A DNA stretch of 64,000 nucleotides from Comamonadaceae bacterium (GTDB taxonomy: Bacteria; Pseudomonadota; Gammaproteobacteria; Burkholderiales; Burkholderiaceae_C). This document shows, piece by piece, positions 1,411 to 12,853 of the stretch. The notes beneath the pieces were generated by a model. It had not been told where the DNA came from. It ran no database searches and worked only from the letters and a program-made list of their open reading frames with translations. Position 1 is the first letter of the stretch, and each line of letters opens with the position of its first letter. Both the position numbers and the translations under genes were made by a program. The DNA is taken from the NCBI GenBank assembly GCA_947442105.1, contig CANEVH010000001.1, forward strand, positions 1 through 64,000. The letters are read 5' to 3'.

Positions 1411-2724
1411 ATGCTGATCGCCACACCCCAATCGATGCACTTTGACGCGCCACTGGCATTGGCCAGCGGCGCGTCCATCCGCGCCTATGGCCTGAGTTTT
1501 GAGACCTACGGCCAGCTCAACGCGGACCGGTCCAATGCGGTGCTGGTTTGCCACGCGCTGAACGCTTCGCATCATGTGGCGGGCGTGTACGCCGGTCAGG
1601 CCAAATCCGAGGGCTGGTGGCACAGCATGATTGGCCCCGGCAAGCCACTGGACACCGACCGCTTTTTCGTCATCGGTGTAAACAACTTGGGCTCGTGCTT
1701 TGGCTCCACCGGCCCCATGCACGTCAACCCCGACAGCGCCGAAGGCCAGGTCTATGGCGCAGACTTTCCGGTGGTCACGGTCGAAGATTGGGTGAACGCG
1801 CAAGCCTTGCTGCTTGACCGTTTGGGTATCCAAACCCTGGCCGCCGCGATGGGCGGCAGCCTGGGCGGCATGCAGGCGCTGGCCTGGACGCTGCAATACC
1901 CCGAGCGCGTGCGCCACGCCGTGGTGATTGCCAGTGCACCCAACCTCACCGCAGAAAACATCGCCTTCAACGAAGTCGCGCGCCGCGCCATCGTCACCGA
2001 CCCCGACTTCCACGGCGGCCACTTTTACCGCCACGGTGTGGTGCCCAAACGCGGCCTGCGCATCGCCCGCATGATCGGCCACATCACCTACCTGAGCGAC
2101 GACGTGATGAACGCGAAGTTTGGGAGGCAACTTAGAAGCGCAGTGGCACGCGTGAGGGAACCAGAATTTGCCGCCGGGCCGCCCCAAGGCAAATTAGCCC
2201 CCCCGGGGGGCAGCGCAGCACACGAAGAGGCAAGCGTGGGGGCCACAGAATTTGCCGCCGGGCCGCCCCAAGGCAAATTAGCCCCCTCGAGGGGCAGCGC
2301 AGCACACGAAGTGGCAAGCGTGGGGGCCTATCTTTACAGCACGCAAGAGGTCGAGTTCCAGATCGAGAGCTATTTGCGCTACCAAGGCGACAAATTTGCC
2401 GACTACTTTGACGCCAACACCTACCTCTTGATTACCCGCGCTTTGGACTATTTCGACCCGGCGCGCGAACACGGCGGCAGCCTGACCAAGGCCTTGGCGG
2501 GCGCCAAAGCCAAATTCTTGCTGGTGAGCTTTGCCACCGACTGGCGCTTTGCACCGGCGCGCAGCCGCGAGATCGTCAAGGCGCTCCTGGACAACCAGCG
2601 CGACGTGAGCTACGCCGAAATCGACGCGCCCCACGGCCACGACGCGTTTTTGCTGGACGACGCGCGCTACCACGACGTGGTGCGGGCTTATTTCAACAAC
2701 GTGGCGCAGGAGGTGGGCGTATGA
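1411..2724 (+). CDS. metX: Homoserine O-acyltransferase MetX, with an in-frame repeat insertion
   Basis: MetX acylates the hydroxyl of L-homoserine, the first committed step of methionine synthesis. Members are annotated as acetyltransferases, although some proteobacterial ones use succinyl-CoA. The alpha/beta-hydrolase catalytic elements are present: nucleophile Ser in GGSLGGMQ, Asp in FATDWRF and His in PHGHDAF. The product is 437 residues, about 55 longer than usual. The excess is two tandem copies of an 84-bp unit (2164-2328) encoding a Gly/Ala/Pro-rich 28-residue repeat at about residues 252-306, between KFGRQLR and YSTQEVEF in the lid region, where relatives run on directly. Reading frame and all later motifs are intact, so the enzyme may still work. 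The start follows the terminator U-tract directly. It overlaps metW by ATGA. Confidence 0.92.
2164..2244. repeat. 81-bp palindromic coding repeat, copy 1 (inside metX)
   Basis: This is the first of three copies in the window. The unit contains two hairpins: ATTTGCC paired with GGCAAAT across a GC-rich loop, then GCCCCC paired with GGGGGC. These are followed by a tail reading roughly CAGCGCAGCACACGAAGNGG and CAAGCGTGGGGGCC. In metX it is translated in the plus direction as a Gly/Ala/Pro-rich peptide beginning [16 protein letters not shown]. The length is a multiple of three and no stop arises in that frame. Confidence 0.9.
2248..2328. repeat. 81-bp palindromic coding repeat, copy 2 (inside metX, tandem)
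   Basis: This second copy lies 84 bp after the first, in the same orientation, separated by three bases. It differs at a few positions; the second hairpin reads GCCCCCTCGAGGGGC here. It is translated in the same frame as copy 1, giving a 28-residue periodicity in the protein. Confidence 0.9.
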
Positions 2725-3352: not shown

Positions 3353-3473
3353 CCGCGGTTAAAAAATGGGGTGTGCTAAGCTTGATTCGTCGGGTTGTCA
3401 GCTGCCCGGCATCGAACTTTTTGGTTCCAAGACGGTGTCCCGTCCAAACGCTGCTCACGCTCAGGAGCAAACC

Positions 3474-11662: not shown

Positions 11663-12853
11663 TCAAGCGGCGCCGGGGCTGCGGCCAAAGCCAAAGACGT
11701 TAGGCTCTTCTATGCCCTCAATCTTGTCAACCAGACGCAGCAGGGGTTTGAGTTCGCGGTAGCGGGCGCAGGTGGCGCGTATGTAGGTAATAAAGCGCGG
11801 CGTGTCGGCCAGGTACTGCGGCTTGCCGTCGCGCAAGGTCAGGCGGACAAAAATACCAGCGACTTTCAGGTGGCGCTGCAAGCCCATCCATTCCACCGCC
11901 CGGTAAAACACGCCAAAGTCGTCGCCCACTGGCAGCCCAGCTTGGCGCGCCTTTTGCCAATAACGCACGGTCACGTCCAGGCAAAAGCCCTCGTCCCAGC
12001 TCAAAAAGGCGTCGCGCATCAGGCTGGCAATGTCATAGGTAATCGGGCCGTAGACAGCGTCTTGGAAATCCAGCACGCCCAATTGGCTGCCGCCTGCCGG
12101 GGCCATGGGATTTGCCGCCGGGCCGCCCCAAGGCAAATCAGCCCCCTCGGGGGGCAGCGCAGCACACGAAGTGGCAAGCGTGGGGGCCATCAAGTTCCTG
12201 GGCATGAAATCCCGGTGCACATAGACGCTGGGCCAGGCCAGGTTGTCGGTGATGATGGTCTCAAAAGCGGCGTCCAGCACCTTGCGTTGGGCGGCGTCCA
12301 GCGCCACCTGGCGGTGCTGGGCGATGTACCACTGGGGAAACAGTTCCACCTCGCGGCGCAGCAGTGCGTGGTCGTAGGGCGGCAGCACGCCGGGGCGCGA
12401 GGCTTTTTGCAAGGTGATGAGGGTGTCGACCGCTTGCAAATACAGCTCCAGCGGCGGTGGGGCGGCGGGGTCGATGACCTGCATCATGGTGCGCGCCCCC
12501 AGGTCGGTCAGCAGCATGAAGCCATGGGCCTCATGCCAATCCAGCACCGCCGGTGCGCGCAGCTGGGCGTCGTGCAGCAGTTGCGCCACCTTCACAAAGG
12601 GCGCGGAGTCTTCTTTGTCGGGCGGGGCGTCCATGATGACCAGGCTCTCACCGTGGTCACCACCCGAAGTGTCAATGCGCAAATAGCGGCGAAAGCTGGC
12701 GTCGGCGGAGGCCGGGCGCAGACTGGCCGGGTTCAGGAAGAAGTGCTTTTGCAAATCGGCCAACCAGGTATTGAACTGGGCTTGGCGCTGGGGGTCAGAC
12801 CAGCTTAGGGCGCTGGGCGCAGCGGCTGGGGCGGGTGGCTTGGTGGGGCTCAT
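11663..12853 (-). CDS. amgK: N-acetylmuramate/N-acetylglucosamine kinase AmgK with an in-frame repeat insertion
   Basis: AmgK phosphorylates MurNAc and GlcNAc at the anomeric position for peptidoglycan sugar recycling; MurU then makes UDP-MurNAc. The 396-residue protein has the phosphotransferase fold with the catalytic motif VHRDFMPRNLM (about residues 213-223) and metal-binding LDFQDA (about 257). Between these two motifs lies a ~27-residue insertion from an 81-bp repeat (12110-12188), read on the minus strand as a Pro/Ala/Gly-rich peptide. In relatives the two motifs are only a few residues apart. The frame is intact. MurU, usually the next gene, is instead at 32.6 kb. amgK is divergent from lptD. 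ATG 12853 gives the normal N-terminus. Confidence 0.9.
   Translation of the reverse strand: MSPTKPPAPAAAPSALSWSDPQRQAQFNTWLADLQKHFFLNPASLRPASADASFRRYLRIDTSGGDHGESLVIMDAPPDKEDSAPFVKVAQLLHDAQLRAPAVLDWHEAHGFMLLTDLGARTMMQVIDPAAPPPLELYLQAVDTLITLQKASRPGVLPPYDHALLRREVELFPQWYIAQHRQVALDAAQRKVLDAAFETIITDNLAWPSVYVHRDFMPRNLMAPTLATSCAALPPEGADLPWGGPAANPMAPAGGSQLGVLDFQDAVYGPITYDIASLMRDAFLSWDEGFCLDVTVRYWQKARQAGLPVGDDFGVFYRAVEWMGLQRHLKVAGIFVRLTLRDGKPQYLADTPRFITYIRATCARYRELKPLLRLVDKIEGIEEPNVFGFGRSPGAA
12110..12188. repeat. 81-bp palindromic coding repeat, copy 3 (inside amgK, read antisense)
   Basis: This copy has the same plus-strand sequence as the two in metX, with only a few substitutions: ATTTGCC...GGCAAAT, then GCCCCCTCGGGGGGC, then the CAGCGCAGCACACGAAGTGG tail. 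Here the host gene runs on the minus strand, so the opposite strand is translated. The element therefore lacks stops in at least one frame on each strand. Confidence 0.9.

What the first reader, a model, noticed from the sequence alone, without database searches (positions are those of the whole stretch)
12110..12188. The same element is translated from the opposite strand inside AmgK
The third copy has the same plus-strand sequence as those in metX but lies in a minus-strand gene, so its complement is decoded. It sits between the kinase catalytic loop (HRDFMPRN) and the metal-binding LDFQD motif, which are nearly adjacent in relatives. An element that stays open in a frame on both strands and is tolerated in two enzymes may be adapted to protein insertion.
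Basis: partly seen in the sequence, partly recalled or inferred. Interest (0 to 1): 0.75.

Follow-up and report, generated by a model that had tools for sequence, protein, structure and literature searches.

The report
Repeat element translated inside core enzymes
A roughly 80-base hairpin-forming repeat found in several beta-proteobacteria sits inside many conserved genes of this bacterium without breaking their reading frames, because it is read as a short flexible peptide, in either orientation but almost always in one of two reading frames.

Summary
In detail: window 12110-12188 is a third copy (94-96% identical) of the repeat in metX, read in frame on the opposite strand in a loop of AmgK. 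It is not a two-gene curiosity: 9 of 13 copy blocks in this draft genome lie in frame in conserved genes. The element is very probably the published beta-proteobacterial repeat element (BRE), also in Bordetella and Achromobacter, there mostly outside genes. Its first hairpin varies from copy to copy with compensatory changes at all seven pairs. Adaptation by open frames is not supported: copies are hardly more open than shuffled DNA (4.96 against 4.73 frames). Instead, in-gene copies use two of six frames, the two poorest in Arg/Lys (own 9 of 9 sites; other genomes 19 of 21, p about 1e-6). This fits selection on the peptide after insertion, as with Rickettsia palindromic elements. Relatives show the AmgK loop empty, filled in either orientation, or with partial copies. 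Where species share an insert it is usually far better conserved at silent sites than the gene around it, which tolerance alone does not explain. How it moves is unknown.

The parts
12110..12188 (+). Repeat element, copy 3, inside amgK; its complement is translated ([26 protein letters not shown])
11663..12853 (-). amgK (N-acetylmuramate/N-acetylglucosamine kinase, aminoglycoside-phosphotransferase-like), 396 aa, open across the insert
12110..12138 (+). Hairpin 1: copy-specific stem 12110-12116 / 12132-12138 around a conserved loop GCCGGGCCGCCCCAA (inner stem 12120-12122 / 12126-12128)
   Evidence: covariation
12141..12155 (+). Hairpin 2 GCCCCC-TCG-GGGGGC (its C-run may instead pair with the terminal GGGGG)
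   Evidence: almost invariant, so not tested by covariation
12157..12179 (+). Hairpin 3 with compensatory pairs
12182..12188 (+). Conserved 3' end GGGGGC plus one base
2166..2244 (+). Repeat element, copy 1, inside metX, translated in sense ([26 protein letters not shown])
2250..2328 (+). Repeat element, copy 2, tandem with copy 1 (84-base period), translated in sense
   Evidence: only one copy at this site in G011 and G070
1411..2724 (+). metX (NCBIfam NF047916 homoserine O-succinyltransferase MetX, 633 bits, over cut-off), host of copies 1 and 2

Best explanation
A non-autonomous, hairpin-forming dispersed repeat of about 75-82 bp, very probably the published beta-proteobacterial repeat element (BRE), lands in short spaces between genes and also inside genes. 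SHOWN: in-gene copies are in frame, stop-free, in either orientation, and nearly always in two of six frames, which give peptides rich in Gly/Pro/Ala/Ser and poor in Arg/Lys (..GPPQG..APSGGS..VGA and APT..LPPEGA..GGPA). SHOWN: the AmgK loop is empty, filled in either orientation, or holds part of an element in different relatives. INFERRED: insertion is not strongly phase-selective, and cells keep only insertions that fall in a permissive loop, with total length divisible by three and in a frame whose peptide is inert. The element later copies in tandem, decays or is deleted, sometimes leaving a few codons as new loop sequence. NOT KNOWN: the enzyme that moves it and what its hairpins do.
For: Own genome: 9 of 13 blocks in frame, hosts identified. 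Four near-complete relatives: 20 of 71 sites in frame; of the 30 sites whose flanking coding frames run the same way without an open in-frame read, 23 have the upstream stop codon at or before the element's edge and 7 read through it as a C-terminal extension, so by stop position none is a mid-gene break (the other 21 sites were not examined this way). Frame use: own 9 of 9 (expected 3.5, p 1.6e-4), other genomes 19 of 21 (expected 8.3, p 1.3e-6). The hardly used frames s0 and a1 are open in 95% of non-coding copies but have the highest Arg+Lys (0.23 and 0.22 against 0.10 and 0.08). AmgK loop series. Empty orthologues for all nine own in-frame hosts; at Mpl three relatives instead hold a short relic-like stretch. 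Shared inserts and tandem-number changes in MetX and PurL. Covariation of hairpin 1.
Against: No clean target-site duplication or single insertion motif, so mobility is inferred only from dispersion and filled/empty sites. A purely tolerated insert should drift, but most shared inserts have far fewer silent changes than their host genes. No protein or RNA evidence of translation. Frame restriction could also come from an insertion-phase preference. Two of 21 sites use another frame, and one of these (L094) matches no NCBIfam family at 1e-25, so it may be a miscall. In-frame calls rest on a codon-usage model trained on 32 reading frames of this window.
Confidence: 0.72

Rival explanations
1. 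The element is a selected, functional nucleic-acid site (binding, folding or processing signal), and genes act as landing pads for it; its DNA sequence is conserved for its own sake even inside coding regions.
For: Seven orthologous in-frame pairs: 8.5 silent changes in 170 sites against 60.3 expected at the flank rate (p about 2e-16). In nine comparisons at sites whose loci were also reached through the host protein, element identity is 0.82-0.99 against 0.65-0.84 at third positions of conserved flank codons. Flanks close to the element are no more alike than distant ones (0.866 against 0.874), and most shared sites keep their own hairpin-1 sequence, against conversion by other copies. Stem covariation.
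Against: Patchy presence: many relatives lack the element at the same site. The pairs were mostly found by similarity to the element, which favours conserved ones; one search is less exposed to this but leaves out the partial and relic-like sites (AmgK L051, L052; Mpl). AmgK and MetX/G070 changed their hairpin 1. No orientation preference in genes. Eight of 37 sampled genus genomes have no match at E<=1e-3.
Confidence: 0.3
2. REP/RAYT-like system: a Y1 (IS200-family) single-strand transposase recognises the hairpins and moves them.
For: Single-strand structure under covariation; a Y1_Tnp protein (a single match in 16 of 22 genomes, mostly about 240 aa) is present in 20 of 22 genus genomes tested, including this one (G000:C16:38490-38825).
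Against: It is also present in seven of seven tested genomes without element matches (G002, G005, G010, G017, G019, G027, G028) and not detected in two that have the element (G018, G031). No significant element match in eight fetched loci around such genes; no related palindrome by eye in the two loci searched for palindromes.
Confidence: 0.15
3. The insert is removed before function (mini-intron, mini-intein or translational bypass).
For: It interrupts conserved enzymes that should work.
Against: Nine of nine own in-frame sites keep the frame and lack stops in the frame used, which removal would not require (though the in-frame class is defined by this), and frame use follows peptide make-up. 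The insert is about 80 bases; no Rfam family matches it at gathering score.
Confidence: 0.04
4. The filled genes are silent or the inserts are assembly artefacts.
For: Draft genome (97 contigs) with two contigs ending in element arrays.
Against: Same-site inserts in other assemblies (G011, G024, G026, G070) and in-frame inserts in near-complete genomes. Host genes of seven pairs show purifying selection in the flanks (pN 0.016 against pS 0.36).
Confidence: 0.03

Closest known systems
BRE, Beta-proteobacterial repeat element (Hot et al. 2011, PMC3110155; section 14 read in full, other passages by search)
   Different: That paper leaves function open and, in the section read, gives no reading-frame, secondary-structure or host-protein analysis. 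Here in-gene insertion is the rule in one genome and nearly confined to two frames. Identity letter by letter was not tested: the BRE sequences are in a supplement I could not read.
Rickettsia palindromic elements (RPE; Ogata et al. 2000/2002, seen only through passages in reviews PMC10969869 and PMC2229807)
   Same: Short palindromic mobile repeats inserted in frame in conserved protein genes; one filled enzyme (guanylate kinase) is reported there as translated and active.
   Different: RPEs are about 105-150 bp and reported for Rickettsia. Here the genomes are beta-proteobacterial (2.1-5.8 Mb), both orientations are used, each with its own frame (I did not check this for RPE), with a copy-variable hairpin and tandem copies.
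MITEs found in genes: ERIC/RU-1, RU-2, Correia/NEMIS (PMC2229807 passages)
   Same: Non-autonomous, 100-200 bp, hairpins, in-frame fusions.
   Different: By eye no terminal inverted repeat and no consistent target duplication here; the element consists of three successive hairpins.
REP elements with RAYT transposases (PMC3733652 seen in search listings only; otherwise recalled)
   Same: Small palindromic repeats, often near gene ends (recalled).
   Different: No link found to the Y1 transposase of these genomes; in-gene copies are common.

Membership tests
BRE | Sequence of the BRE as listed by its authors | not testable with these tools
   List S1/Fig. 6 not readable (supplement look-ups 0); I saw no element sequence in section 14 or the passages found
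BRE | Present in Bordetella, Comamonadaceae and other beta-proteobacteria, in tandem with few bases between units | tested here: met
   Named loci of Bordetella (genomosp. 5, trematum, petrii, ansorpii), Achromobacter, Polaromonas, Rhodoferax; tandem Bordetella copies
BRE | Length 75-91 bp, G+C about 69% (63.7-78.9%) | tested here: inconclusive
   Here about 75-82 bp full copies; 22 matches in 10 of the 14 fetched Bordetella loci are 50-76 bp (profile-trimmed, some cut by contig ends) at 76% G+C, range 69-83%
BRE | Known loci, e.g. next to lexA in B. pertussis/B. bronchiseptica | tested here: inconclusive
Rickettsia palindromic element | In-frame insertion in conserved protein genes with a tolerated peptide | tested here: met
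   (that the peptide is inert is inferred)
Rickettsia palindromic element | Host is Rickettsia | tested here: not met
   The named carriers are beta-proteobacteria. Works like an RPE; not filed as one
Rickettsia palindromic element | RPE sequence family | not tested
   No RPE sequence was compared
MITE | Terminal inverted repeats and target-site duplication | tested here: not met
   By eye no terminal inverted repeat in 60 aligned copies and no consistent duplication at the nine filled/empty host sites; only AmgK shows a candidate (ATGGCCCC)
REP/RAYT | Cognate Y1 transposase gene flanked by the repeats and matching their distribution | tested here: not met
Self-splicing intron or intein | Intron fold or splicing motifs | tested here: not met
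   No Rfam match at the element; insert of only 28 codons; intein motifs not searched

The most novel reading that the evidence does not exclude
The repeat is a selected structured DNA/RNA element that uses tolerant loops of conserved enzymes as landing pads: its nucleotides are conserved in place (at most shared sites including the site's own hairpin 1) about six- to seven-fold more than the silent sites of the host gene, while its peptide only has to be inert. Core enzymes would then carry a regulatory or architectural DNA signal read through in two codon frames, one per orientation, and its decay would leave new protein loops.
Probability: 0.3. Interest if true: 0.82.

Novelty: new variant of a known kind. 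Interest (0 to 1): 0.62.

Why it matters
It extends coding by mobile repeats, best known from Rickettsia, to a beta-proteobacterial repeat, in both orientations. It gives a natural experiment on which inserted peptides enzymes tolerate: same DNA, six frames, two commonly kept. The AmgK loop shows different states of insertion and loss in living relatives, a direct view of how new loop sequence may arise. The silent-site conservation of shared inserts makes the open question of BRE function testable.

Tried and rejected
Openness of frames as an adaptation: not supported. Folding energy of the single copy: not better than shuffles (z -0.75); the structure claim rests on covariation alone. RNAalifold preferred pairing of the C-run with the terminal G-run, so hairpin 2 is uncertain. 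A copy-specific 5' arm taken from the target site: not supported by the biotin carboxylase empty site (by eye). Target-site duplication: only a candidate at AmgK (ATGGCCCC). RAYT link: no support. Gene breakage by non-in-frame copies: none seen among 30 sites, by stop position only, host families not checked there. The first two frame counts had a faulty hairpin anchor; one search replaces them. The MetX pair had misaligned flanks and was dropped; with it the figures are pS 0.069 against 0.389. In one search five orthologous duplicates (and L023, L052) were dropped before the test, and copies without an anchor (8 of 135) were left out, L091, L108 and two of the eight AmgK-series copies among them; the six remaining AmgK-series copies, all in the two frames, were not in the test either. 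One search printed nothing (faulty search motif; repeated). Literature: in the listings I saw no report of in-frame use of this repeat beyond the sentence in PMC3110155; the library holds only open-licence papers.

Full report
WHAT IS THERE. The window copy at 12110-12188 is 94-96% identical to the tandem pair in metX and lies on the same strand, while amgK runs on the other, so its complement is decoded. From PRN to LDFQD there are 120 nt here and 36 nt in 8 of the 30 orthologues looked at; against PDB 3csv the two aligned stretches are 31 residues apart here and 6 there. The host is an AmgK-type kinase (NF045759, 365 bits, below its 550-bit cut-off).

IN THIS GENOME. The DNA search gives 22 matches at E<=1e-3 in a 3.64-Mb draft of 97 contigs, grouped by a profile (51 copies, 82 positions) into 13 blocks. 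A codon-usage model trained on 32 window reading frames and applied only to the flanks of 13 blocks in frame inside a gene. The hosts are AmgK, MetX (2 copies), a biotin carboxylase subunit, Mpl (3 copies, one shortened), Rep helicase, IcmF, PurL (2 copies), ValS and an MsbA-like ABC exporter. A tenth block (2 copies), which the model puts in another frame, is open into the N-terminus of PyrR, start codon uncertain. The rest are an array seen at two contig ends, one beside ftsZ and one beside lpxC (one place counted as two blocks, inferred), and a copy between infB and rbfA; these four genes are named by eye from the translations. Arrays between genes may be lost in contig gaps, so the in-gene share may be inflated.

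IN THE GENUS. 29 of 37 sampled genomes of the genus have matches. In four near-complete ones I took all matches listed (73 rows, which scored 40 of 44 and 40 of 41 candidates in two of them; 71 sites). Context: 20 in frame; 25 with flanking coding frames on the same strand but in different phase; 5 same phase with a stop; 12 with one coding flank; 7 opposite strands; 2 neither. For the 25+5 sites, 23 have the upstream stop codon at or before the element's edge and 7 read through the element and stop just past it, so by stop position none looks like a gene broken in the middle; the other 21 sites were not examined this way. In-frame hosts include RecQ, HrpA, PEP carboxylase, RelA (two sites in one gene), UvrA, GlpK, RadA, MurG and P-type ATPases; L101 and L094 matched no family at 1e-25. 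The genus name is not given by the tools; a named Rhodoferax record carries the repeat, so Rhodoferax is likely but not shown.

ELSEWHERE. A DNA search of 399 genomes of the order found matches in 42, scoring at most two candidates per genome, so this is a lower bound. After dropping repeats of the same site and sites near locus ends, 6 of 107 sites are in frame. Three of these are in Comamonadaceae (L247, Polaromonas L250 twice), one is in an unplaced Burkholderiales bin (L294), one in Achromobacter (L264) and one, with low scores, in Bordetella (L276). The codon model was not retrained for these genomes. In-gene insertion thus looks like a habit of the Comamonadaceae side.

FRAMES. In-gene copies read ..GPPQG..APSGGS..VGA in sense or APT..LPPEGA..GGPA in antisense. 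With the frames named from the own genome, 9 of 9 own sites (expected 3.5 given each copy's open frames, p 1.6e-4) and 19 of 21 sites elsewhere (12 of 14 in the four genomes, 7 of 7 among best matches of other genomes; expected 8.3, p 1.3e-6) use them. The own-genome p-value is not corrected for choosing the frames from those data; the other is out of sample. The frames are not chosen for lack of stops: among 79 non-coding copies a1 and s0 are each open in 95%, a2 in 92%, s2 in 85%. Open frames per copy are 4.96 against 4.73 in shuffles. Arg+Lys is 0.10 (s2) and 0.08 (a2) against 0.14-0.23 in the others. I infer a filter on the peptide.

STRUCTURE. In 60 aligned copies (chosen from 112 full-length ones) a three-hairpin structure has 91.2% of cells paired (79.7% in shuffles), with 170 cells changed on both sides against 54.5 in shuffles (0 of 500) and 28-52 when slid. 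All seven pairs of stem 1 change on both sides; helices 4 and 5 (hairpin 3) add four more such pairs, in all 11 against 8.9 in shuffles (7 of 500). The number of further pair types is no higher than in shuffles (34 against 34.3). Hairpin 2 hardly varies and could pair otherwise. A single copy does not fold better than shuffled sequence. Copies in the same array can have wholly different stem 1 with nearly the same rest. Rfam has no match there.

AMGK AS A SERIES. Of 30 orthologous loops (the 30 best-matching of 59 genomes with AmgK) five hold a full antisense element, one a lengthened antisense element (L058), one a sense element (L054), and two partial ones (L051, L052); eight are minimal (36 nt) and the other 13 are of intermediate length (57-69 nt), of which L062 and perhaps L064 look like relics by eye. 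Insertion points differ by a few codons, which suggests several events (inferred).

SHARED INSERTS. MetX (two copies here, one in G011 and G070), PurL (two here, one in G070 and G011), Rep (also G070, G026) and IcmF (also G024) are filled at the same place; other relatives are empty there. In seven orthologous in-frame pairs (eight; MetX dropped for misaligned flanks) silent changes in the insert are 8.5 of 170 sites against 60.3 expected from the flanks; pN is 0.025 in inserts and 0.016 in flanks. Among 15 pairs from three genomes, in-frame inserts average 0.973 identity (n=4), full-length others 0.936 (n=9) and flanks 0.87, with no gradient near the element; two pairs with a partial copy, one of them not orthologous (P-type ATPase against GlpK), were left out of the insert means but not of the flank means. 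Most of these pairs were found through element similarity, which favours conserved copies. The less exposed set (nine comparisons) still gives 0.82-0.99 against 0.65-0.84 for third positions, AmgK and MetX/G070 being the least conserved; partial and relic-like sites are not in it. I cannot explain this by tolerance alone; it is the main reason for the second reading.

KNOWN OR NEW. The element matches the published BRE in taxa, size and tandem habit (section 14 of PMC3110155); letters could not be compared. The in-frame habit resembles Rickettsia palindromic elements (review passages). In the listings I saw nothing on frame-restricted, two-orientation coding use of this repeat. Translation, mobility and function remain untested by experiment.

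Noticed in passing
window 3390-3454: Rfam chrB-b RNA (RF03086) exactly at its gathering score (36.5 bits); the gene beside it was not examined.
   Followed up: no
L112 and L143 (G034, G007): RelA/SpoT homologue; in G007 it carries two elements at different sites in one gene, one of them in the otherwise rare frame s0 (GGQR).
   Followed up: partly
L121 (G007) and L033 (G021): Glycerol kinase filled at what looks by eye like the same place in two species, with hairpins 1 and 3 of different type, as if the element had been exchanged or rewritten in place.
   Followed up: no
L038:1-230 and L040:1-212: A tandem array ends two contigs, one beside ftsZ and one beside lpxC (named by eye); true copy number unknown.
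   Followed up: no
G000:C16:38490-38825 (L335): Y1 (IS200-family) transposase-like gene of about 240 aa; the family is found in 20 of 22 tested genomes of the genus; no link to the repeat found.
   Followed up: partly
four near-complete genomes, 23 sites: Copies between co-directional genes sit directly behind the upstream stop codon (19 of 23 within 15 bases), in both orientations; seven more extend the upstream protein's C-terminus.
   Followed up: partly
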